From the NCBI RefSeq assembly GCF_003853705.1, contig NZ_QTQI01000020.1, forward strand, positions 62,001-126,000: 64,000 nucleotides of DNA. Direction: 5' to 3'. The DNA comes from Burkholderia sp. Bp8992 (GTDB lineage: Bacteria > Pseudomonadota > Gammaproteobacteria > Burkholderiales > Burkholderiaceae). Below, piece by piece: positions 5,920-28,723 of the stretch. The notes under the pieces were generated by a model. It did no database searches and had not been told where the DNA came from. It worked only from the letters and a program-made list of their open reading frames with translations. A program made the translations under genes and the position numbers. Position 1 is the stretch's first letter. Every line of letters begins with the position of its first letter.

Positions 5920-6864
5920 ATGCCCGAGGATTTCCATTTCCTGCTGCTGCCCGGCTTCTCCGCGCTCGGCTTCATGTCGGCGGTCGAACCGCTGCGCGTC
6001 GCGAACCGCTTTCGCACCGAGCTGTACCGCTGGCACGTGATCAGCGCCGACGGCGCGCCCGTCGCCGCGAGCAACGGCATTCCGGTCGCGGCCGAAGCCG
6101 CGTGCGCGGACGTCGACCAGGTCGACACCGTGTTCGTCGTCGCGGGCTTCGACCCGCTCGTGTGCTACACGCGCACGCTCGCCGACTGGCTGCGCCGCCA
6201 GCACCGGCATGGCGCAACGCTCGGCGGCATCGACACGGGCAGCTTCGTGCTCGCGGAAGCCGGGCTGTTCGACGAATCGCAGCCGCTCACGCTGCACTGG
6301 GAAGCGCTGGCCGCGTTCCGCGAACGCTATCCGGGCCTGAACGCGACGCAGGAGCTGTTCGAGATCGACGACCGGCGCATCACGTGCGCAGGCGGCACCG
6401 CGTCGATCGACATGATGCTCGACCTGATCGGCCGCCGGCACGGCGCCGACCTCGCGGCGGCCATCTCCGAGCAGTTCGTCGTCAGCCGCATCAGGCAGCG
6501 TTCGGACAGCCAGCGGCTCGAGATCGCCGCACGCTACGGCGTGCACAACCGCAAGCTGATCCAGGTGATCGGCACGATGCAGCAGCATATGGAGAACCCG
6601 CTCGGCTCCGACGCGCTCGCGCAGGATGTGTCGATCACGCGGCGCCAGCTCGAACGGCTGTTCAGCGCGACGCTGAACGACACGCCGACGCACTTCTATC
6701 TGAACCTGCGCCTCGATCGCGCCCGCGAACTGCTGCAGCAGACCGACATGAGCATCACGTCGGTGTGCGTCGCGTGCGGATTCGAATCGCCGTCGCATTT
6801 CTCGCGAACGTATCGCGCGCGGTTTGGCGTCAGCCCGCGCAGCGACCGGCGCGCGACGCGCTGA
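5920..6864 (+). CDS. GlxA-type regulator (DJ-1/PfpI plus AraC domains)
   Basis: 314 residues. The N-terminal DJ-1/PfpI-like domain (LLLPGFSALGFMSAVEPLRVANR, then GGIDTGSFVLAEAGL) lacks the catalytic Cys at the nucleophile elbow, as in regulators of the GlxA/GbdR/ArgR group. The C-terminal AraC domain (QDVSITRRQLERLFSATLNDTPTHFY, CVACGFESPSHFSRTYRARFG) binds DNA. It is related in plan to GbdR at 43472. It sits 125 bases after the EutR-like gene. Ligand unknown; GlxA-group regulators often sense quaternary amines or amino acids. The start is the ATG before PEDFHF; an upstream GTG at 5857 is possible. Confidence 0.8.
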   Translation: MPEDFHFLLLPGFSALGFMSAVEPLRVANRFRTELYRWHVISADGAPVAASNGIPVAAEAACADVDQVDTVFVVAGFDPLVCYTRTLADWLRRQHRHGATLGGIDTGSFVLAEAGLFDESQPLTLHWEALAAFRERYPGLNATQELFEIDDRRITCAGGTASIDMMLDLIGRRHGADLAAAISEQFVVSRIRQRSDSQRLEIAARYGVHNRKLIQVIGTMQQHMENPLGSDALAQDVSITRRQLERLFSATLNDTPTHFYLNLRLDRARELLQQTDMSITSVCVACGFESPSHFSRTYRARFGVSPRSDRRATR

Positions 6865-7342
6865 TCGTCGCGCGTTTTAATCACAATCCAGCGCGGTATT
6901 GCGCGTTCCGGCAGCGTTTCCCGCCGCTCGCTGCACAATGCCGGCGATTGATCGGCGAACCGAAGCGGTCGTCGAAAATAATTTGGAATGTCGTTGAAAA
7001 TGTTCTGTAACATATCAAACAAAGTTAGATAGGCAGCCTAACGACACGCATGCCGCATCCCGGCACGCGTCGCGCCACGCCGGCTGCCAACCGATATCGA
7101 TCCGATCCGAGGGGTATGACATGACGATGCTCGCTTCGCCGTCGCCGCACCTGCCTGCCGTTCGCTTCTCCGCCGCCTCTTCCGCCTGTTTCTTTTCGAC
7201 CTGACATTTAGGGTTCCTTAGTCAGTCGACACCCCCAACACCGCTTCGCCGCACCGGTTCCATCGAACCGGCGCGCGGGCCGTGTCGTGCCTGCGCGCCA
7301 CGAACGCGCGGGCGTGTCCAACCGTTGAGATGAGGATCACGT
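6865..7342. other. Intergenic region upstream of the metalloprotease gene
   Basis: 478 bases without a convincing large gene. It contains an AT-rich patch around 6975-7030 with a weak promoter candidate (TTGGAA at 6983-6988, 17 bases, TGTAAC at 7006-7011), a broken inverted repeat GTTAG/CTAAC near 7024-7042, a 27-codon frame at 7121-7204 preceded by GAGGGG, and a CTGAC/GTCAG inverted repeat with 15-base spacing around 7200-7225. The homologous protease is quorum-sensing controlled in the B. cepacia complex, but I could not find a convincing lux-type box here. Confidence 0.5.
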
Positions 7343-20386: not shown

Positions 20387-20407
20387 GCGGGCGGCCACGA
20401 TCGTTCG

Positions 20408-21566: not shown

Positions 21567-22178
21567 TCAGGTCAGCGCCCGCATTGCGATGTCGACGATC
21601 GAGGCCAGTTCCGCCTCCGACGCACTCGACTTGCCCAGCACGCGCATGCCCTGGATCAGGCACAGCAGGAACCGGCCGACCTCCTCCGGATCGAGGTTCC
21701 GGTCGAAATCGCCCGACTGCTGGCCGCGCGCGACGGCAAGGCTGAATTGCGTGCCGATGCGCAGCAGCGTCGCTTCGATGTGTGGCCGCAACGCGTCGTC
21801 GCCGGGCAGCAGCTCGACGGCTGAATTCGTGATGAGACAGCCGCGGCGCTCGGACAGCCGCACGCCGATTTCCGTGTAGTACAGCAGCGCTTCCCTGAGC
21901 GCCTGCCGCGGCGGCAGATCCGCCGCGAGGCGCTCCTTGAGGCGCGCGATCGCGCCTTCCGCGTAACGGTCGAAGGCGGCGACCAGCAAGCCGTGCTTGT
22001 CGCCGAACGTCCGGTACAGGCTGCCGCGAAACACGCCGGTCGCCTCGCACAGCGTGTCGATCGACGTCGCGTGATATCCCTGCTCCCAGAACACGCGTGC
22101 CGCGGCGTCGATCACCTCGTCGGTGTCGAATTCGCGTGGGCGCCCCCTGTCGCGGGAGCCGGGAGAGGTCGGACTCAT
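21567..22178 (-). CDS. TetR/AcrR-family regulator
   Basis: 203 residues. N-terminal helix-turn-helix (VIDAAARVFWEQGYHATSIDTLCEATGVFRGSLYRTFGDKHGLLVAAF, about residues 25-72, in parts) and a C-terminal ligand-binding domain of the kind with RGCLITNSAVEL. Such regulators usually control a neighbouring exporter or oxidoreductase; the DMT gene downstream on the same strand is the likely target. Site C, upstream of its own start, suggests autoregulation. Confidence 0.87.
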   Translation of the reverse strand: MSPTSPGSRDRGRPREFDTDEVIDAAARVFWEQGYHATSIDTLCEATGVFRGSLYRTFGDKHGLLVAAFDRYAEGAIARLKERLAADLPPRQALREALLYYTEIGVRLSERRGCLITNSAVELLPGDDALRPHIEATLLRIGTQFSLAVARGQQSGDFDRNLDPEEVGRFLLCLIQGMRVLGKSSASEAELASIVDIAMRALT

Positions 22179-22195
22179 GAGTCCGGATATTAGAA

Positions 22196-22216
22196 CCGAT
22201 CATTCCCAAAATCAAG
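22196..22216. promoter_or_regulatory. Candidate TetR operator, site C (before tetR)
   Basis: Core CCGATCATTCCCAAAAT, 18 bases upstream of the tetR ATG, matching sites A and B. Together the three suggest one repressor acting on both genes. Confidence 0.5.
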
Positions 22217-22275
22217 CGCCGTCGAGGATTCCCGCGTGCTCGACCCGTCCGGTTGATTTCGTCGCGCAATTCGAC

Positions 22276-22308
22276 CGAATCGTTTTCCCGGTTCGGCGCC
22301 TCTTAGTT
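22276..22308 (+). promoter_or_regulatory. ECF-type promoter 1 (sigma factor operon)
   Basis: CGAATCGTTTT (22276-22286), 13 bases, CTCTTAGTT (22300-22308). Same sequence and spacing as the promoters at 23629, 28222 and 28140 (minus). It lies 70 bases before the DUF6789-like gene and the sigma gene, so the sigma factor probably drives its own operon. Confidence 0.75.
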
Positions 22309-22378
22309 CGGGAAGGCGCCGTCGCGCCTCCGTCTCGATCGTGGATCAACGATCCCCAACCCTGAAGAACCTGACACC

Positions 22379-22849
22379 ATGAATTCCTACGTTCGTTCGA
22401 TGGCCGCCGGATTGGTCGCCACTGTGGCGCTGTCGCTGCTGATGCTGATGAAGGCGGCCATGGGCTTGATGCCCGAACTGGATCCGGTCGCCATGCTCGC
22501 GGCCATGGCGCACGCCAATATGGGCATGCCGGCCTCCCCCGCGGTGGGATGGCTGGCGCACTTCATGATCGGCACCGCTCTGTGGGGCATCCTGTTCAAA
22601 CTGCTCTACAGCCGGCTCCCCGGCGCATGTGCGCGCATCAAGGGCATGTCCTTCGCCGTGCTGGCCTGGCTGCTGATGATGGTCCTGGCCATGCCGATGG
22701 CCGGCGCGGGCCTGTTCGGCATGAAGCTCGGGATGATGGCTCCGGTCATGACCCTGATGCTGCACCTCGTCTGGGGCGCCGTGCTCGGTTACACCTACGG
22801 CCGGCTCGGGGCCCATGCGTGTGCGGCTCGATCCGCCACGTCTTCGTGA
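22379..22849 (+). CDS. DUF6789-like four-helix membrane protein
   Basis: 156 residues, unusually Met- and Ala-rich, with four hydrophobic segments (about 5-30, 50-78, 95-112 and 118-140). Resembles the DUF6789 family as I recall it; no function is known. First gene after ECF-type promoter 1 and 29 bases before the sigma gene, hence the same operon. Many ECF sigma factors are followed or preceded by a membrane anti-sigma factor; none of the usual kinds is here, and this protein occupies that position. Whether it senses anything is speculation. Confidence 0.7.
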   Translation: MNSYVRSMAAGLVATVALSLLMLMKAAMGLMPELDPVAMLAAMAHANMGMPASPAVGWLAHFMIGTALWGILFKLLYSRLPGACARIKGMSFAVLAWLLMMVLAMPMAGAGLFGMKLGMMAPVMTLMLHLVWGAVLGYTYGRLGAHACAARSATSS

Positions 22850-22878
22850 GCAGCAACTCGCGCGTCGGAGGTATAAAC

Positions 22879-23508
22879 ATGATGGAAGCAGGCAGGTCGA
22901 ATCGGGATTCACCGATTGGACCGATCATCGAATCAGAACGGGAGAACACCATGGCAGTCCCTGTGGACGACCGCAACCATCTGATCATGGCGGCGCAGAC
23001 CGGAGATGCGGTCGCCATTACCCGTTTGCTGGCAGTCTGCCAGGCAGACGCTCGCCGCTATGCGTACAAGCACTGTCACGCCAGCGACGTCGACGATGCT
23101 GTCCAGGAGTCGCTGTTGATCATTTCCCGCAAGGTCGGCGGGCTCAAGGCGGCTGCGGCATTTTCATCGTGGCTGTTCACGGTCATCAAGCGCGAATGTC
23201 GAAAACTTTCGCGGATGATGTTCAAGCACGATCCTCTGCCGGACGAGGTGGCCGAGGAACTGATGCTGCATCGTCCGGACGATGCACTGAGAATCGACCT
23301 CGCTCATGCGCTGGAGTCGCTGCCTGCTCACTACCTCGAGGTTGTCCTTCTGCGCGACTTCGAGGAACTGACCATTGCCGAGATCGCGACTCGGCTCGGC
23401 GAACAACCTGGCGCAGTCAAGAGCCGGCTGCATCGTGCCCGCGAACTGGTGCGTGAATACATGATCGGCACGGAACCGTCCTCCACGCACCGCGCGCCGG
23501 CGAAATAG
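22879..23508 (+). CDS. ECF-family RNA polymerase sigma factor
   Basis: 209 residues from ATG 22879, which has a perfect GGAGG seven bases upstream; ATG 22951 with GGAG is an alternative giving 185 residues. Region 2 is seen in ADARRYAYKHCHASDVDDAVQESLLIISRKV and FSSWLFTVIKRECRKLSR; region 4 in LPAHYLEVVLLRDFEELTIAEIATRLGEQPGAVKSRLHRARELVREYM (quoted in parts). No C-terminal regulatory extension. Its likely regulon is defined by four look-alike promoters in the next 6 kb, covering the bufferin operon. In Caulobacter a SigF-type ECF factor controls a similar operon. Ends at a strong terminator. Confidence 0.88.
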   Translation: MMEAGRSNRDSPIGPIIESERENTMAVPVDDRNHLIMAAQTGDAVAITRLLAVCQADARRYAYKHCHASDVDDAVQESLLIISRKVGGLKAAAAFSSWLFTVIKRECRKLSRMMFKHDPLPDEVAEELMLHRPDDALRIDLAHALESLPAHYLEVVLLRDFEELTIAEIATRLGEQPGAVKSRLHRARELVREYMIGTEPSSTHRAPAK

Positions 23509-23579
23509 CCAGGCAGCGCCGCACCGGCTCCCTCGACCGCAGAGGGTGCAATCTCCTCGTCATGGCTGCGACGGCCAAT

Positions 23580-23620
23580 CCGCGTTCACCGCATCCCGGC
23601 CGGTGAACGCGGTTTTTTTT
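23580..23620 (+). terminator. Intrinsic terminator of the sigma factor operon
   Basis: Arms CCGCGTTCACCG (23580-23591) and CGGTGAACGCGG (23601-23612), a perfect 12-base stem with nine-base loop, then eight T. It separates the sigma operon from the bufferin operon, whose promoter starts nine bases later. Confidence 0.93.
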
Positions 23621-23628
23621 CAGTGCCC

Positions 23629-23661
23629 CGAACCGTTTTGCTCGTCCCCGCCCTCTTAGTT
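23629..23661 (+). promoter_or_regulatory. ECF-type promoter 2 (bufferin operon)
   Basis: CGAACCGTTTT (23629-23639), 13 bases, CTCTTAGTT (23653-23661). It directly follows the sigma operon terminator and lies 71 bases before the bufA start. Confidence 0.8.
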
Positions 23662-23732
23662 GCCAAGGCCGGCTGCTGTCGGCCGCCTACCCGCGGCTCG
23701 TGCGGCCGCGCCCTTTCCATCAGGAGATTTCG

Positions 23733-24074
23733 ATGTCGAACCACCACATGTTGTCCGCCGCCGTTGCCACGGCATTCGTCGCAGCCTTCGCCGCGCCTGC
23801 GTTCTCGCAGGACATGAGCCAGGCCGACATGCAGAAGAAGATGATGGAAACCCGGGCCATGAACATGGCAAAGATGAAGACCGGCAAGTTCGAGAAGTGC
23901 TACGGCGTCGCGCTCAAGGGGCAGAACGACTGCTTCGCCGGCGCCGGCACGAGCTGCGCGGGCACCAGCTCCGCCGACTACCAGGGCAATGCCTGGAAGA
24001 TGGTCGCCAAGGGCACCTGCACGACGATCTCGACGCCGAACGGCATGGGCAGCCTCGAGCCCAAGAAGGTCTGA
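23733..24074 (+). CDS. bufA: DUF2282-family bufferin precursor (BufA-type RiPP)
   Basis: 113 residues. Signal peptide 1-25 (ends AFS-QD). The mature part has a Met-rich stretch with seven Met between 28 and 48, then four Cys at 56, 67, 75 and 96 in the family pattern [23 protein letters not shown]...GTC. In DUF2282 bufferins, Cys residues are converted to thiooxazole-type copper ligands by the MNIO enzyme, and the product buffers copper in the periplasm. The modifying enzyme and its partner follow at once. AGGAG precedes the ATG. The Met cluster would add Cu(I) ligands; that is my inference. Confidence 0.85.
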
Positions 24075-24140
24075 CACCCGCAACCGTGCAGGCGGGCGGC
24101 GGCCTGACGGCCGCGCCCGCCCGCCGGAGAGAGGAGCATC

Positions 24141-25034
24141 ATGGGTCTTCACCAGACTGCGCACGCTGCCGGCCGGGGACTCCCTGCCTGCGCCGGCGTC
24201 GGCCTCAAGGCCGACCACTACCGCGTCATCATCGAGACGCTGCCGGATATCGGCTTCCTCGAAGTGCACGCGGAGAACTACATGGGCGCCGGCGGGCCGC
24301 CTCATCGCTACCTGACCGCCATCCGCGAACACTACCCGCTGTCGCTGCACGGCGTGGGCCTGTCCATCGGCGCCGACGGACCGCTCGACCACGCGCATTT
24401 GCAGCGCCTCAAGGCGCTGAACGCGCGGTACGAACCTGCGCTGTTTTCCGAACACCTTGCCTGGTCCTCGCATGGCAACCGCTACCTCGGCGACCTCCTG
24501 CCAGTGCCCTATACCGACGACGTGCTGCATCGCGTCTGCCGACACATCGACCAGGTACAAATGGCCCTGAATCGGCAAATGCTGCTGGAGAACCCTTCCA
24601 CCTACCTGCGGTTCGAGGCAAGCACCTGGTGCGAGACGGATTTCATCCGCGAGATCGCGCAAAGAACCGGGTGCGGCCTGCTGCTGGACGTAAACAACGC
24701 GTACGTTTCAAGCACCAACCAGGCGTGGGACGCGCACGCCTATATCGATGACTTCCCGCTTGATCACGTGCAGCAGATTCACCTGGCCGGCCACGCCCGC
24801 CGGACTGACGAACAAGGACGTCCGTTGCTGATCGACTCGCACGACCAGTGTGTCGACGAGCCGGTATGGAACCTCTTTCGGCGGGTCATCGAACGCATCG
24901 GGCCGGTCCCGACCTTGATCGAGCGGGACGCCAACGTTCCCGCGTGGCCCGAGTTGCAGGCGGAGGCCGTGATGGCCGAGACGCTGATGGGTACGTCCAG
25001 CACGGAGGAACGGCGCCATGGCACGCGCGGCTGA
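24141..25034 (+). CDS. bufB: MNIO (DUF692) RiPP-modifying enzyme
   Basis: 297 residues. Multinuclear non-haem iron oxidase with a TIM-barrel fold that oxidises Cys in the precursor peptide. Likely iron ligands are in place: His 70 (LSLHGVGLS), His 105 (SEHLAWS), Glu 150 (LLENPSTY), Asp 183 with Asn 185-186 (LLLDVNNAYVSS), His 214 (IHLAGH), Asp 232/His 234 (IDSHDQ) and Glu 261 (LIERDANVP). Cytoplasmic. It overlaps the next gene by 17 bases, which fits the obligatory pairing of BufB with BufC. Confidence 0.9.
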   Translation: MGLHQTAHAAGRGLPACAGVGLKADHYRVIIETLPDIGFLEVHAENYMGAGGPPHRYLTAIREHYPLSLHGVGLSIGADGPLDHAHLQRLKALNARYEPALFSEHLAWSSHGNRYLGDLLPVPYTDDVLHRVCRHIDQVQMALNRQMLLENPSTYLRFEASTWCETDFIREIAQRTGCGLLLDVNNAYVSSTNQAWDAHAYIDDFPLDHVQQIHLAGHARRTDEQGRPLLIDSHDQCVDEPVWNLFRRVIERIGPVPTLIERDANVPAWPELQAEAVMAETLMGTSSTEERRHGTRG

Positions 25035-25806
25035 ACACCTGGAGGAATTTGCCCTGGCGCTGCTCGATCCCGACCGTCCGATACCCGAAGGCCTGGTTGG
25101 CCCGGATGGCGAGCCGAGCCCCCGACGGTTTGCCGTTTACCGGAACAACGTCTTCGTCGGGCTGACCGATGCGCTGCGCGCAGGCTTCCCCCGTGTCGGC
25201 AGGCTGGTGGGAGACGAATTCTTCGCGGCCATGGCCCGCTTCTTCGCGGCCGCGCATCCGCCCGGCTCGCCGGTACTACTGCACTACGGCGCCGGGTTCC
25301 CGGCGTTCCTTGCCGCCTTCCCGCCCGCCCAATCCTTGCCCTATCTCGCCGACGTGGCCCGCATCGAGCGCGCCGCGACCGAGGCTTATCACGAGCGCGA
25401 GGCGGCACCCTTGTCATTCGACGCGCTCCTGGCCGTACCGATCGACCAGACGCCACGGTTGCGATTCAGGCTTCACCCTTCGGTTCGCCTGCTGCGCTCC
25501 CGATTTCCGGCCTTCACGATCTGGCGAATGAACGCTGTCGACGGCATCCCCGCGCCGGTCGACCTCTCCGAAGCGCAGGACACGATGGTGCTGCGTCCCG
25601 ACGCCGAGGTGGATGTGCGCCACGTGCTTCCGGCGAGCCATGACTTCGTGGCCGCGCTCGGCCAGGGCATGACGCTATCGCAGGCGATGGAAATCGCCCT
25701 TGCCGTCGACGGCGATTTCGACCTCGCGGCGAACCTGCGCGAGCTTGCCGGAATGGGAGCCTTCGTCGGCTTCGAACTGCAGTCCGAGGAAAACGATCAT
25801 GAGTAA
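25018..25806 (+). CDS. bufC: DUF2063-family MNIO partner protein
   Basis: 262 residues. The N-terminal DUF2063 domain (FALALLDPDRPIPEGL, RRFAVYRNNVFVGLTDALRAGFPRVGRLVGDEFF) is the precursor-recognition partner of DUF692 enzymes; the C-terminal half is less conserved. Translationally coupled on both sides: 17-base overlap with bufB, 8-base overlap with the DoxX gene. Expected to deliver the bufA product to the enzyme in the cytosol before export. Confidence 0.9.
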   Translation: MARAAEHLEEFALALLDPDRPIPEGLVGPDGEPSPRRFAVYRNNVFVGLTDALRAGFPRVGRLVGDEFFAAMARFFAAAHPPGSPVLLHYGAGFPAFLAAFPPAQSLPYLADVARIERAATEAYHEREAAPLSFDALLAVPIDQTPRLRFRLHPSVRLLRSRFPAFTIWRMNAVDGIPAPVDLSEAQDTMVLRPDAEVDVRHVLPASHDFVAALGQGMTLSQAMEIALAVDGDFDLAANLRELAGMGAFVGFELQSEENDHE

Positions 25807-26308
25807 CGCCAGATTGGCGAAAGGCTGGTCCCGCGTATCGCGCACGGCAAACCGCGCACTGCACGGGCTGGAACAGATCGCCTGCATGGCCGCCCCGCTG
25901 TTTCTTCGGGTCGCGCTGGCATTGCCCTTCTTCAAGTCCGGTCTCACGAAATGGGACGGCTTTCTGTCGCTGTCCCCGACCGCGGGCTTCCTGTTCGAGG
26001 AAGAATTCAAGCTGCACATCCTCGGGCAGCTCTATGACCTGCCCGCTCCCGACGTGCTCGCGTTCGCCAGCGGCCTGGGCGAAATCGTCTTTCCGATCCT
26101 GCTGGTCATCGGCGTTGCCACTCGACTGAGCGCGCTGGGCCTGCTCGGCATGACGGCGGTGATCCAGCTCATCGTGCCCGACGGTTGGGCGAACTTCCAT
26201 CTGCCCTGGGCCACCATGGCGATCGCCTTGATCGCCATCGGGCCGGGCCGGCTTTCCCTCGACCACTGGATGCGCAAGCTTTCCGGACGTCGCGGGGAAG
26301 GCTGCTGA
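25799..26308 (+). CDS. DoxX-family membrane protein of the bufferin operon
   Basis: 169 residues from ATG 25799 inside the bufC end. Four hydrophobic segments and the DoxX pattern (ALPFFKSGLTKWDGF near the first helix, LGQLYDLPAPDVLAFASGLGEIVFPILLVIGVATRLSALGLLGMTAVIQL, quoted in parts). DoxX proteins are common fourth members of bufferin operons and may handle quinone-linked redox chemistry; the role is unproven. Last gene of this operon, converging with the membrane protein gene at 26313. Confidence 0.87.
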   Translation: MSNARLAKGWSRVSRTANRALHGLEQIACMAAPLFLRVALALPFFKSGLTKWDGFLSLSPTAGFLFEEEFKLHILGQLYDLPAPDVLAFASGLGEIVFPILLVIGVATRLSALGLLGMTAVIQLIVPDGWANFHLPWATMAIALIAIGPGRLSLDHWMRKLSGRRGEGC

Positions 26309-26312
26309 ACGA

Positions 26313-27317
26313 TCAAGGACGCATTTTGCCCAGCCAGCGCCAAATCAGGAACACCGTGGTCAGCGACAGCGTGCCGATGCCCACGGAGGCCGCGAACCTG
26401 TAATCGACGGCTGGAATGACGAACGGCAGCAGGCCCACGGCGAGCGCCGGTGGCACGTGCAGATCGAATACCCGCACGATGAGGATGCCGCAGGCCATGC
26501 TGGCGACGACCGCCAGCGGCGCGTCGCCGAAGGCCGTGACCAGTGCGATGCCGATCGACGCGCTCAACGTGCATGCGATCGGCAACCGCAGCGGCTTTCT
26601 GGCCCACGGGCAGACGTCCGCATGGGCAAACATCTCGAAGCCGATCACGATCAGCGGCGGGAACAGGATCAGCCGCCAGCCGGTAACCTCCGCCAGGATC
26701 GCCGTGCCGACCAGAAACACCAGAAAGAACGGGAGCCACGCGTACGTGCGCGGCGCTTCCTCCGTCAGGTCGTCGGCCGCATCGGCGGGCGTTCGCGCTT
26801 GCGGCGGCGGGACGATGCGAGGCCAGACGATGGAGATCGCGGCGAGCAACGCCAGCCCGACCAGCAACGATGCGGGATAGTACGCGCTCGTGACGTCGAG
26901 CGAGATCGGCAGCACGCCGGCCGAGATGGCCGGGGCGATCGGTGATTTCAGGACCCGGATGACGACGAGCGCAGCCGCAGTCGACAGCAGGATCGGCACG
27001 ATCCCGCTGCCCATGCTTCGAACGAGCAGCGTGCCGACGAGGCCTGTGAGCAGCGGCGTCATCACCAGCATTCCCGGCGCCCTGGCCCAGGTGCCTTGCG
27101 GTCGCTTGATGACGTCATGGGCCAGGGCGCCTAGTTCGGGAAAAAGAATGGTGTGAATCTGCGTGACCGCTGCGATCCACGCGATCGCCCCCATGTAAAG
27201 CGCGGCCAGCAGTTCGCCAGCCCATCCCCGCGAAGGGGACGGCCAGCGGACACGAGACAGTTTCACGCGTGCCGCCCGCCACAACCGTCGGCGGCACGCG
27301 CCTGCCTGGGCGGGCAC
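26313..27317 (-). CDS. HPP-like integral membrane protein with internal duplication
   Basis: About 334 residues from GTG 27317; a GTG at 27266 (317 residues) is equally possible, as neither has a good ribosome site. Around ten hydrophobic segments. The halves repeat one another: FPELGALAHDV...ARAPGMLV...RVLKSPIAPAISAGVLPISLD matches FPPLIVIGFEM...WARKPLRL...RVFDLHVPPALAVGLLPFVIPAVDY. This is an HPP-like fold arranged twice. No substrate known. Only four bases separate its stop from the DoxX stop, so the genes are convergent. It lies inside the ECF regulon region, but I found no matching promoter immediately upstream; it could be read from promoter 28140 through the AhpD-like gene. Confidence 0.65.
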   Translation of the reverse strand: MPAQAGACRRRLWRAARVKLSRVRWPSPSRGWAGELLAALYMGAIAWIAAVTQIHTILFPELGALAHDVIKRPQGTWARAPGMLVMTPLLTGLVGTLLVRSMGSGIVPILLSTAAALVVIRVLKSPIAPAISAGVLPISLDVTSAYYPASLLVGLALLAAISIVWPRIVPPPQARTPADAADDLTEEAPRTYAWLPFFLVFLVGTAILAEVTGWRLILFPPLIVIGFEMFAHADVCPWARKPLRLPIACTLSASIGIALVTAFGDAPLAVVASMACGILIVRVFDLHVPPALAVGLLPFVIPAVDYRFAASVGIGTLSLTTVFLIWRWLGKMRP

Positions 27318-27352
27318 CTGCGGCTACCGAAGGAACGGAAAACGCAGCAGAC

Positions 27353-27925
27353 TCATTTCGTCCCTGCCGGCAGAGCGTAGGACGCAAAGGGCGCATCCAC
27401 CGCGGTCTCGAACAGATGATTGGTGTAGTTCGAGATCGTCTTGACGGCGATGGCAAGCACGATCTGCAGCGCCTGCTGCTCGCTGTAGCCTGCGCCAGCG
27501 AAGGTTTGCAAAGCGGCTTCGGACGGGTTGCCTCGCGTTTGCACCATCTCCTTGACGAAAGCGGCCAAGGCACCCAGCTTCGGATCGTCGATCGTTGCGC
27601 CATCACGGATTGCGTGGATCGCCTGCGGCGGCACCTTCGATACCTTGTCGGCGATCATGCTGTGCGCGGCGATACAGTAGTGACACGCGTTTTCCCGGCT
27701 GATGGTCAGGAACACGACCTCCTGCTCCGCGGGTGTGAAGCGGGATTCCTTGCGGAACCAGTCGTACCCATGCAGATAGGTCGAGAGTGCGCCGGGCGCG
27801 TGGGCCATCTCTCCGTACATGTTGGGAATGAATCCCTGCTTCTTGCGCGCGTTGCCCAGCAACTCGCGGCTCTTTTCGGGGGCGGTGTCTTCGGAAAGAA
27901 GGGGCAGTGTCAGCCTGGCATTCAT
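27353..27925 (-). CDS. AhpD/carboxymuconolactone-decarboxylase-like protein
   Basis: 190 residues from ATG 27925 with AGGAG upstream. It has the peroxidase-type redox motif CHYC followed by IAAH in ENACHYCIAAHSMIADKV, as in AhpD-like alkylhydroperoxidases. Probably a cytosolic thiol peroxidase or disulphide reductase. An ECF-type promoter (28140-28111, minus) lies about 185 bases upstream with no gene between, placing it in the sigma factor's regulon and hinting that the stress sensed is oxidative. Confidence 0.85.
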   Translation of the reverse strand: MNARLTLPLLSEDTAPEKSRELLGNARKKQGFIPNMYGEMAHAPGALSTYLHGYDWFRKESRFTPAEQEVVFLTISRENACHYCIAAHSMIADKVSKVPPQAIHAIRDGATIDDPKLGALAAFVKEMVQTRGNPSEAALQTFAGAGYSEQQALQIVLAIAVKTISNYTNHLFETAVDAPFASYALPAGTK

Positions 27926-28110
27926 GGAAAGCTCCTGAGTGGGAAACATCCCGGCTTCCGGGGTTGTTTCGACAAGGGCGAAGCTCGGCGCGACGCCGAA
28001 GTCGTGCGGGTCGAGCGAGCTTGGGCAGGGCCCTCGAAAATCGGGGGAAACCGCTCAAGGCGACAACTCGCACGAGCAAACGGCAGCCGCGAAGAGCGAC
28101 GGTTGCTATC

Positions 28111-28140
28111 CAAGAGGCGGCGAATCGTCAAAACGGTTCG
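28111..28140 (-). promoter_or_regulatory. ECF-type promoter 4 (AhpD-like gene)
   Basis: Minus strand: CGAACCGTTTT (28140-28130), 13 bases, CTCTTG (28116-28111). One mismatch from the CTCTTA of the other three. The 185 bases to the gene start form an untranslated leader without visible genes. Confidence 0.7.
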
Positions 28141-28221
28141 CGTCGAAGAAAAAAATCTGTACGGCTGCACCGCGAGATCCCGCTTCGCTTTCGCGTATCC
28201 CGACTTTCAGGAGGGATGTCG

Positions 28222-28254
28222 CGAACCGTTTTGACGGCAGCGCCCCTCTTATTG
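28222..28254 (+). promoter_or_regulatory. ECF-type promoter 3 (small membrane protein)
   Basis: CGAACCGTTTT (28222-28232), 13 bases, CTCTTATTG (28246-28254). It lies back to back with promoter 4, 82 bases away, and 92 bases before the gene at 28346. Confidence 0.78.
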
Positions 28255-28345
28255 GCGAGACGGAGCAGAGCGTCCGCCCGCGGCGGGCAGGCACGACATC
28301 CGGCACCTTTCCAGACGTACCGCCATCGGGTGACAAGAGCACATC

Positions 28346-28558
28346 ATGTACTGCAGCACTTCAGTGACAAAGCAATTGCTTCGCGGGGCTTCGGCCGTTG
28401 CATCCATTGCGGGCGCCATCGCGCTCACGCCCCGCTTCTGGCCCGCGATCGGACTGTTCGGCCTGGCCGTCTACTTCATGCGGGGATGTCCGGCCTGCTG
28501 GCTTGCGGGGCTGATGGAGGCCGTTCGGGCTCGTCGCGCGCGCAGACCAACACCGTGA
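28346..28558 (+). CDS. Small membrane protein with CPAC motif
   Basis: 70 residues. One or two hydrophobic segments (about 15-45) followed by MRGCPACWLAGL and an Arg-rich tail. I do not recognise a named family with certainty; the GCPxCW motif just outside a helix suggests metal binding or thiol redox. Real-gene evidence is its promoter: it is the only open frame after ECF-type promoter 3. No good ribosome site; the start could differ by a few codons. Confidence 0.6.
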   Translation: MYCSTSVTKQLLRGASAVASIAGAIALTPRFWPAIGLFGLAVYFMRGCPACWLAGLMEAVRARRARRPTP

Positions 28559-28684
28559 GCGTCGCGTGATCGGACGCGGTATCGTGCTGTCGGCGAGTCA
28601 TGTGCCGCCCGCACGTGTGCGAGGGCCATGGGCAAGGAATTGAGCGAACATGCGTGGCGCCGGGTGCATCACGTGCTGCATTCG

Positions 28685-28723
28685 GCGCGCCGGACCCGTG
28701 TGCGGTTTCCGTGTCCGGCGCGC
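28685..28723. terminator. Hairpin between convergent genes
   Basis: Perfect 11-base arms GCGCGCCGGAC (28685-28695) and GTCCGGCGCGC (28713-28723), loop 17. It lies between the small membrane protein gene (+) and the permease gene (-). No T run on either side; possibly a bidirectional or Rho-assisted end. Confidence 0.45.

What the first reader, a model, noticed from the sequence alone, without database searches (positions are those of the whole stretch)
22276..28254. Four copies of one ECF promoter define a local regulon around the bufferin operon
Seen: CGAATCGTTTT or CGAACCGTTTT, then exactly 13 bases, then CTCTTA (CTCTTG once) occurs at 22276(+), 23629(+), 28222(+) and 28140(-). Each copy lies upstream of a separate unit: the sigma factor operon, bufA, the small CPAC membrane protein and the AhpD-like gene. 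Identical spacing in four places, two of them back to back, is hard to get by chance. Inference: this is the promoter of the sigma factor encoded at 22879, forming an autoregulated stress regulon that joins copper-buffering RiPP synthesis with thiol peroxidase activity.
Basis: partly seen in the sequence, partly recalled or inferred. Interest (0 to 1): 0.87.

Follow-up and report, generated by a model that had tools for sequence, protein, structure and literature searches.

The report
Mobile sigma-factor cassette controlling copper peptide
A small mobile gene cassette appears to carry its own transcription sigma factor together with four near-identical promoters for it, so that a probable copper-binding-peptide operon and a few redox and membrane genes travel with a private switch.

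Summary
In detail: CGAAYCGTTTT-N13-CTCTTR occurs four times in 64 kb without mismatch; allowing 3 mismatches adds none (shuffles give 0.27). In 85 loci carrying relatives of the sigma factor, the half-sites lie 17 nt apart 63 times and at other spacings from 12 to 23 once. A matrix built from relatives only scores the window's sites 36.7-44.0 bits. In 300 genomes of the order the strict motif occurs 8 times: 5 beside a clade sigma gene, 1 beside what looks like a broken one, 1 elsewhere in a sigma-positive genome, 1 unrelated.

So it is very probably the promoter of an ECF sigma lineage that I found undescribed. It differs from the known bufferin regulator SigF/NrsF: no NrsF gene, another promoter, and a distant sigma sequence. 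All four promoters lie in a 6.5 kb segment absent from two near relatives. Two enterobacterial plasmids inspected hold a related sigma gene and bufferin genes together.

Not shown: transcription, inducing signal, copper binding, peroxidase activity. The sigma factor best starts at 22951, not 22879.

The parts
22276..22305 (+). ECF promoter 1 (CGAATCGTTTT-N13-CTCTTA), before DUF6789-sigma: autoregulation
   Evidence: exact match; matrix score 36.7 bits, window not in the training set; conserved with diverged spacer in Burkholderia sp. LMG 13014 and Comamonas
22379..22849 (+). DUF6789 small Met-rich membrane protein, first gene of the sigma operon
   Evidence: PF20587 112.3 bits, cut-off 27.1; a DUF6789 gene also heads the bufferin stretch on plasmid pYDC637
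22951..23508 (+). ECF sigma factor, 185 aa, region 2 and region 4 only
   Evidence: PF08281 and PF04542 above cut-off; start set by relatives; AlphaFold model mean pLDDT 82.9
23577..23620 (+). probable intrinsic terminator between the sigma operon and the bufA promoter
   Evidence: 15-nt inverted repeat, 93% complementary, 9-nt gap, followed by T8; a shorter stem at the same place, whose total count (4) was not above shuffles (4.6)
23629..23658 (+). ECF promoter 2 (CGAACCGTTTT-N13-CTCTTA), before bufA
   Evidence: exact match; 37.5 bits; conserved in L037/L052
23733..24074 (+). bufA, DUF2282 (Buf1) bufferin precursor with four Cys
   Evidence: PF10048 84.3 bits, cut-off 22.4; Cys counted on the translation
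24141..25034 (+). bufB, MNIO bufferin maturase
   Evidence: NF050167 386.9 bits, cut-off 310
25018..25806 (+). bufC, DUF2063 partner
   Evidence: PF09836 92.4 bits, cut-off 27.2
25799..26308 (+). bufD, DoxX-family membrane protein
   Evidence: PF07681 64.3 bits, cut-off 23.6
26313..27317 (-). 334-aa HPP-like integral membrane protein, downstream of and probably co-transcribed with CMD
   Evidence: TM_HPP 21.9 bits, below cut-off 27.2; 78.3% DNA identity over 89% to a gene annotated HPP family beside a chlorate-reductase cluster on pALIDE01
27353..27925 (-). AhpD-like (CMD family) protein
   Evidence: PF02627 25.8 bits, cut-off 23; homologues within 7.5 kb of the sigma gene in 16 other loci of the clustered set
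28111..28140 (-). ECF promoter 3 (CGAACCGTTTT-N13-CTCTTG), towards CMD-HPP
   Evidence: exact match; 44.0 bits; in L037 and L053 the equivalent site reads thioredoxin-CcdA
28222..28251 (+). ECF promoter 4 (CGAACCGTTTT-N13-CTCTTA), before the CPAC protein
   Evidence: exact match; 39.0 bits; conserved in L037
28346..28558 (+). 70-aa membrane protein with GCPACW motif
   Evidence: no Pfam family; motif invariant in the 7 aligned of 8 sequences found, window included; the eighth, L108, was left out and ends before the motif
22224..28696 (.). extent of the segment absent from G001 and G009, which are colinear on both sides
   Evidence: blastn of the region to L158 and L162

Best explanation
The 22.22-28.70 kb segment is a horizontally acquired, self-contained stress cassette. 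Its ECF sigma factor (22951-23508) recognises GAAYCGTTTT-N13-CTCTTR (a GAAYCG -35 and a CTCTTR -10, 17 nt apart). It transcribes its own operon (DUF6789-sigma, positive feedback), bufABCD, a CMD-HPP pair and a small CPxC membrane protein. When an envelope metal or thiol-oxidant stress activates it, the feedback loop amplifies the response; BufA is made, modified at Cys by BufB/BufC and exported to bind copper; the other products act on envelope redox or metal stress. Supported by sequence: the promoter sites, their coupling to this sigma lineage, the autoregulatory position, and the extra segment. Inferred: transcription itself, the signal, copper binding and every protein activity. No known anti-sigma family was found in the cassette, so how the sigma factor is held inactive is open.
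For:: four exact sites, 0.27 expected; in 85 loci (1.245 Mb) 63 matches at a 17-nt spacer, one at any other spacer from 12 to 23; 135 matrix hits of 11 bits or more (132 distinct sequences) in the window plus 84 loci against 1 on reversed sequence; of 133 sites of 14 bits or more, 128 lie before a same-strand gene of the recurrent set; 67 of 83 sigma loci have a same-strand site within 1 kb upstream of sigma, 59 of them at 286-330 nt; in a profile-based sample, 12 of 13 sigma loci have such a site; strict motif in 1 of 65 genus genomes, the only one with a close sigma; 8 strict hits in 300 genomes, 7 of them in genomes with the sigma gene or what looks like its remnant; 0 hits for the reversed pattern; empty site in two relatives; sigma, CMD, DUF6789 and buf genes together on an enterobacterial plasmid, with a 30.5-bit site before DUF6789.
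Against: No transcription data. 16 of 83 sigma loci lack a same-strand site within 1 kb upstream: 2 are cut short, 4 have it before an upstream thioredoxin gene, 4 have only an opposite-strand site, 6 have none. On plasmid pYDC637 no site of 8 bits or more lies near the sigma gene. With a looser -35 (CGAAYCG-N17-CTCTTR), 2 of 8 hits in six genus genomes with a sigma relative lie far from the sigma gene; with 2 mismatches the hits in 21 relatives (32) equal the reversed control (31). The window's own genome could not be searched. Near most relatives no bufferin operon was found, and bufferin linkage changes at least 5 times on the sigma tree. The strict motif has one unrelated hit in 300 genomes (G356).
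Confidence: 0.88

Rival explanations
1. The repeats are operators for an ordinary transcription factor (such as the TetR next door) rather than sigma promoters.
For: A TetR gene lies beside the cassette, and a TetR gene lies close to the sigma gene on plasmid pYDC637.
Against: The consensus is not palindromic, its spacing is fixed at 17 nt, and 128 of 133 sites point at a same-strand gene of the recurrent set. The TetR gene lies outside the extra segment, since homology to G001 and G009 runs through it to 22220-22224. The motif tracks the sigma gene across families.
Confidence: 0.05
2. The sigma factor is an ordinary member of the SigF/NrsF (ECF16) group that controls bufferin-type operons in Caulobacter.
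For: Same logic: an ECF sigma factor with an autoregulated promoter and bufferin-type operons as targets (PMC3511200, passages).
Against: No NrsF family match among ten proteins scanned, nine of the cassette and TetR. No GTAACC-N16-CGAA in the cassette. An NrsF-linked sigma factor of S. meliloti scores 56.9 bits against the clade model, like unrelated ECFs (58.3 or less), while the 83 clade rows score 223 or more; outer members seen only later score 159-168 bits on a related profile. One NrsF-linked representative only.
Confidence: 0.04
3. The sigma factor is regulated by a small co-expressed membrane protein (DUF6789, CPAC or, in relatives, the YgaP-like/DUF2892 CPxC protein) acting as an unorthodox anti-sigma factor or sensor.
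For: 57 of the 84 loci of the sigma cluster hold a DUF2892 gene, typically about 250 nt upstream of sigma, and 54 sites face one. CPxC is invariant in 28 of 28 aligned (28 of the 57 were aligned). CPAC directly follows sigma in L061, L079 and L085.
Against: DUF6789 heads the bufferin stretch 13 kb from sigma on pYDC637, which fits an effector better. Homology of CPAC to DUF2892 is not supported by profile comparison and is weak in Pfam (3 of 7 members, best E 0.005). No interaction data.
Confidence: 0.3
4. The sigma factor itself senses thiol or metal stress through its three region-2 cysteines.
For: C30, C42 and C83 are present in 85 of 85 aligned rows, one of them the window itself and two the same Burkholderia gene. 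None of 15 more distant ECF stretches has all three, though only 5 of these cover all three positions. OrbS (PMC9023288, abstract) and CorE (PMC8999054, passages) show that ECFs can sense metals by Cys. No known anti-sigma family in the cassette.
Against: C30 is missing in the enterobacterial plasmid sigma and in L175. One search seed contained the C42 motif, so that sample is not neutral for C42. In the model C30 is within helix 20-41 and C42 one residue beyond its end, too far apart for a single site if the helix is continuous. No C-terminal Cys-rich extension. The cysteines may be structural.
Confidence: 0.2

Closest known systems
SigF/NrsF regulon of Caulobacter crescentus (PMC3511200, passages)
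   Same: Small regulon of an autoregulated ECF sigma factor that includes two DUF2282-DUF692-DUF2063 operons, one of them with DoxX
   Different: Negative regulator NrsF (DUF1109), promoter GTAACC-N16-CGAA and a YedY target there; here no NrsF, GAAYCG-N17-CTCTTR, and CMD/HPP/CPxC targets
EcfF/OsrA of Bradyrhizobium japonicum (PMC3420878, passages)
   Same: Autoregulated ECF regulon in which a periplasmic thioredoxin and a DsbD-like protein are co-regulated, as in relatives of this cassette
   Different: ECF16 with a DUF1109 anti-sigma factor; MetSO reductases as targets
gig operon with rpoQ-rsqA of Cupriavidus metallidurans (PMC10304878, passages)
   Same: Copper-induced operon in divergent position to an ECF sigma gene; PMC12452194 (passages and section 14) models a C. 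metallidurans Buf1 bufferin and cites the gig work
   Different: Predicted membrane anti-sigma factor RsqA; the paper reports no evidence yet of RpoQ-dependent initiation
RpoE2/HrsE of Haemophilus influenzae (PMC7907618, passages)
   Same: [quoted passage not shown] linked to hypochlorite stress
   Different: 67-aa cytoplasmic anti-sigma factor co-transcribed with the sigma gene; here a probable terminator follows the sigma gene
CorE of Myxococcus xanthus and OrbS of Burkholderia cenocepacia
   Same: ECF sigma factors that sense metal through their own cysteines (PMC8999054 passages; PMC9023288 abstract)
   Different: Their sensor Cys are in a C-terminal extension or region (plus a CXC linker motif in CorE); here all three Cys are in region 2

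Membership tests
ECF (group 4) sigma-70 factors | only sigma regions 2 and 4 | tested here: met
   PF04542 and PF08281 above cut-off; 185 aa; leading structural matches include ECF sigma factors such as 1or7
ECF (group 4) sigma-70 factors | autoregulatory promoter with a GAAC-type -35 | tested here: met
   by sequence only; no transcription data
SigF/NrsF (ECF16) system | NrsF (DUF1109) anti-sigma gene | tested here: not met
   no such Pfam match among ten proteins, nine of the cassette and TetR
SigF/NrsF (ECF16) system | GTAACC-N16-CGAA promoter | tested here: not met
   no match in window 22001-28700
SigF/NrsF (ECF16) system | sigma sequence of that group | tested here: not met
   S. meliloti NrsF-linked sigma 56.9 bits on the clade model against 223 or more for the 83 clade rows; one representative only
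Buf1 bufferin gene cluster | DUF2282 precursor with four Cys, MNIO, DUF2063 (plus DoxX) | tested here: met
Buf1 bufferin gene cluster | modified cysteines and copper binding | not testable with these tools
   needs mass spectrometry and metal binding
CorE/OrbS-like metal-sensing ECFs | Cys-rich C-terminal region | tested here: not met
   Cys only at 30, 42 and 83 of 185 (translation)
AhpD-like peroxidases | CMD domain with CxxC | tested here: met
   PF02627 above cut-off; CHYC in the translation
AhpD-like peroxidases | peroxidase activity | not testable with these tools
   TIGR01926 68.9 bits, below cut-off 81.8

The most novel reading that the evidence does not exclude
A whole lineage of ECF sigma factors in Betaproteobacteria, with outliers in Alphaproteobacteria, Gammaproteobacteria and enterobacterial plasmids, works without a classical anti-sigma factor. 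It acts as a portable private transcription system: the sigma factor senses envelope thiol or metal stress itself or through a tiny CPxC membrane protein, and different stress genes (bufferins, a KCG-repeat Cys-rich exported peptide with DUF6969, cytochrome c-thioredoxin-CcdA, CMD, GDCCVxC proteins) join the regulon by acquiring one stereotyped promoter.
Probability: 0.4. Interest if true: 0.8.

Novelty: new variant of a known kind. Interest (0 to 1): 0.62.

Why it matters
It points to a second way, apart from SigF/NrsF, in which bacteria put bufferin synthesis under a dedicated sigma factor. It gives a near-digital promoter rule, with spacing fixed to the base, by which regulon members can be found in raw sequence. 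It suggests sigma factor and targets moving together, also on enterobacterial plasmids. It names new candidate envelope-stress proteins (CPAC, DUF6789, the KCG-repeat peptide with DUF6969) and makes the question of how an ECF without a recognisable anti-sigma factor is controlled testable in harmless relatives.

Tried and rejected
Searching the window's own assembly was impossible: it is not held. Loose motif searches (2 mismatches) in 21 relatives gave 32 hits against 31 for the reversed control; only the strict form or the matrix is informative. The idea that CPAC is a DUF2892 relative was tested by profile comparison and not supported; a weak Pfam hint remains. A cysteine-cluster sensor was favoured at first because three Cys were invariant, then weakened by the plasmid sigma factor and L175, which lack C30, and by helix placement; model coordinates were not in the box, so no distances were measured. 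A thioredoxin or CcdA remnant in the window was sought and not found: the best tblastn matches have E 0.12, and the one near the break covers promoter DNA. End repeats of a transposable element: none in either end alone apart from two inverted pairs at the right end, and none of the 20 direct-repeat families shown (of 21) pairs the two ends. Sigma-70-like promoters in the cassette are at chance level. Paper searches in whose listings I saw no description of this sigma lineage or motif; only the listed titles and abstract starts (at most 20 per search) were seen, plus the passages cited. Supplementary files, where ECF group descriptions may sit, could not be opened.
Full report
Observation. CGAAYCGTTTT-N13-CTCTTR occurs at 22276(+), 23629(+), 28222(+) and 28111-28140(-), all without mismatch, and nowhere else in the window with up to three mismatches; shuffles give 0.27 on average and never four. 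The genes they face are a DUF6789 membrane protein followed by an ECF sigma factor, the DUF2282 bufferin precursor with MNIO maturase (NF050167, 386.9 bits, cut-off 310), DUF2063 and DoxX, a 70-aa CPAC protein, and a CMD (AhpD-like) protein followed by an HPP-like membrane protein. The sigma factor is best started at ATG 22951: alignment to relatives begins there and a GGGAG lies before it. A 15-nt inverted repeat with a T8 tail (23577-23620) separates the sigma gene from the bufA promoter. Sigma-70-like promoters are at chance level.

The motif belongs to the sigma lineage. The sigma factor was searched in 65 genomes of the genus (6 with a match at E 1e-20) and in species genomes, where 241 stretches encode a relative and the best 80 were kept, at 55-85% identity, mostly Betaproteobacteria. 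In 85 loci (1.245 Mb; L129 is identical to L038, and L051 holds nearly the same DNA as L052), GAAYCG and CTCTTR lie 17 nt apart 63 times and at any other distance from 12 to 23 once in all. A matrix of 61 distinct sites from relatives, the window left out, finds 135 sites of 11 bits or more (132 distinct sequences) in the window plus 84 loci, against one on reversed sequence; about half of them are the training sites themselves. It scores the window's four at 36.7, 37.5, 39.0 and 44.0. Of 133 sites of 14 bits or more, 128 precede a same-strand gene of the recurrent set and 5 were not assigned: DUF2892 54, KCG-repeat peptide 22, cytochrome c 13, thioredoxin 11, sigma 10, BufA 9, DUF6789 4, CPAC 4, CMD 1 (automatic assignment to the nearest classified frame, window included). 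One of the 5, in L037, does face a thioredoxin gene. 67 of 83 sigma loci have a same-strand site within 1 kb upstream of sigma, 59 of these at 286-330 nt. Of the other 16, 2 are cut short, 4 have the site before an upstream thioredoxin gene, 4 have only an opposite-strand site and 6 have none.

Controls. The species-genome scan used peptide seeds, so a profile search of 300 genomes of the order was run: 13 have the sigma gene at E 1e-25, and 12 of these 13 have a same-strand site just upstream, with GAATCC in place of GAAYCG in six outer members (three of the 13 repeat loci already held). The strict 30-nt motif in 300 genomes of the order, drawn in the same way, gives 8 hits in 6 genomes and none for the reversed pattern. 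Five lie beside a clade sigma gene; one lies before a DUF2892 gene followed by what looks like a broken sigma gene (L191); one is elsewhere in a sigma-positive genome, upstream of a frame and a GDCCVxC-like frame, by eye (L183); one is unrelated as far as its 3 kb shows (L192). Counting genomes, 4 of 13 sigma-positive against 2 of 287 others, Fisher p 3e-5, G189 with the broken gene counted as negative. In the genus the strict motif occurs in 1 of 65 genomes, the one with the close sigma factor. With a looser -35, two of eight hits in six genus genomes with a sigma relative lie far from the sigma gene.

A mobile cassette. G001 and G009 are colinear with the window up to 22224 and 22220 and resume at 28696 and 28695, with 107 and 116 bp between, so 6.5 kb holding all four promoters is extra in the window. 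Three further relatives (L159-L161) match on both sides but leave off earlier, near 20390. A homologous cassette in Burkholderia sp. LMG 13014 (L037/L052) keeps three of the four sites exactly and a fourth at 30 bits. It also has thioredoxin (6062-6445), CcdA (6448-7173, 92% identical to that of L053) and a further frame between the divergent promoter and CMD, and frames resembling mercury resistance near DoxX. Comamonas L053 has thioredoxin-CcdA-CMD behind the same divergent pair. The window most simply lost these genes at about 28014-28044, leaving CMD directly behind the promoter with a 185-nt leader. On the sigma tree the window groups with Achromobacter, Burkholderia, Comamonas and a Shewanella, and the bufferin label (presence within the DNA held) needs 6 changes, of which 5 are forced.

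Plasmids. A protein search at E 1e-15 matched 50 plasmid records; not all belong to the lineage (13 are Streptomyces, 7 Ensifer at about 49% where listed). The 21 listed of Klebsiella, Salmonella, Escherichia, Providencia and Citrobacter are all at 70.3% identity. On pYDC637, between a Tn3-family transposase and IS elements, lie TetR, a haloacid dehalogenase, CMD, the sigma gene and, on the other strand, DUF6789, an IS66 element, DUF2282, DUF692, DUF2063 and DoxX; a Klebsiella plasmid shows the same order as far as it was fetched. A 30.5-bit site precedes DUF6789 on pYDC637; none of 8 bits or more lies near this sigma gene. Two other plasmids (Cupriavidus KK10, pNL1) have sites of 30.5 and 35.3 bits upstream of sigma. 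The window's HPP gene is 78% identical over 89% of its length to one beside a chlorate-reductase and chlorite-dismutase cluster on pALIDE01; a reactive-chlorine link is a lead only.

How the sigma factor is controlled. No known anti-sigma family is present among the ten proteins scanned. Two models remain. (a) Direct sensing: C30, C42 and C83 are in 85 of 85 aligned rows, one the window itself and two the same gene, and as a set in none of 15 more distant ECF stretches, only 5 of which cover all three positions. In the profile-based sample C42 and C83 are in 13 of 13 and C30 in 12. But the plasmid sigma factor lacks C30, as does L175, and in the model (pLDDT 82.9, pTM 0.53) C30 lies within helix 20-41, C42 one residue beyond its end and C83 in helix 68-91. 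(b) A small CPxC membrane protein: in relatives a YgaP-like/DUF2892 protein (57 of 84 loci) with invariant CPxC (28 of 28 aligned) sits upstream of sigma under the same promoter; in the window DUF6789 takes this place and CPAC has its own promoter. CPAC and DUF2892 were not shown to be homologous.

Comparison. Caulobacter SigF/NrsF controls bufferin-type operons from GTAACC-N16-CGAA with NrsF as negative regulator (PMC3511200, passages). Here there is no NrsF and no such motif, and an NrsF-linked sigma factor scores 56.9 bits against 223 or more for the 83 clade rows; the outermost members, found later, score 159-168 on a related profile. It works like SigF/NrsF in its targets but is not a member by these tests. 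Bufferin literature (PMC12452194: passages and section 14) notes sigma and NrsF genes in Buf1 clusters; I saw no account of this lineage in the searches named under Tried and rejected. The bufferin function itself is taken from that literature.

Verdict. It is a new variant of a known kind: ECF-controlled bufferin synthesis by a distinct, mobile sigma lineage.

Noticed in passing
L075:5622-5870(-) and L075:4891-5658(-); same cluster in 26 loci: An exported KCG/KCAPK-repeat Cys-rich peptide without any Pfam or NCBIfam match, next to a DUF6969 protein and faced by 22 copies of the promoter; possibly a new metal-binding peptide family.
   Followed up: partly
L080:2625-2936 and L183 downstream of 1501: GDCCVxC-domain proteins recur near the sigma gene (11 loci; one checked by NCBIfam) and, by eye, behind a distal copy of the promoter in G274.
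   Followed up: partly
L190 (pYDC637 143000-186000): The sigma lineage and a bufferin stretch with IS66 between DUF6789 and bufA on a Tn3-flanked plasmid segment; the same sigma factor is listed in 21 enterobacterial plasmids, 13 of them from milk, veal or cattle.
   Followed up: partly
L037:9627-12897: Frames resembling a mercury-resistance operon (MerA, MerP and MerR-like, by eye) lie inside the homologous cassette of Burkholderia sp. LMG 13014.
   Followed up: no
window 26313-27317(-): The HPP-like membrane gene is 78% identical in DNA to one beside chlorate reductase and chlorite dismutase genes on pALIDE01.
   Followed up: partly
L191 (G189:C33): A perfect promoter and DUF2892 gene followed by what looks like a broken sigma gene: perhaps a decayed copy of the system.
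   Followed up: partly
L051: A contig labelled Tardiphaga (alphaproteobacterial MAG) carries nearly the same cassette as Burkholderia sp. LMG 13014; transfer or misbinning.
   Followed up: no
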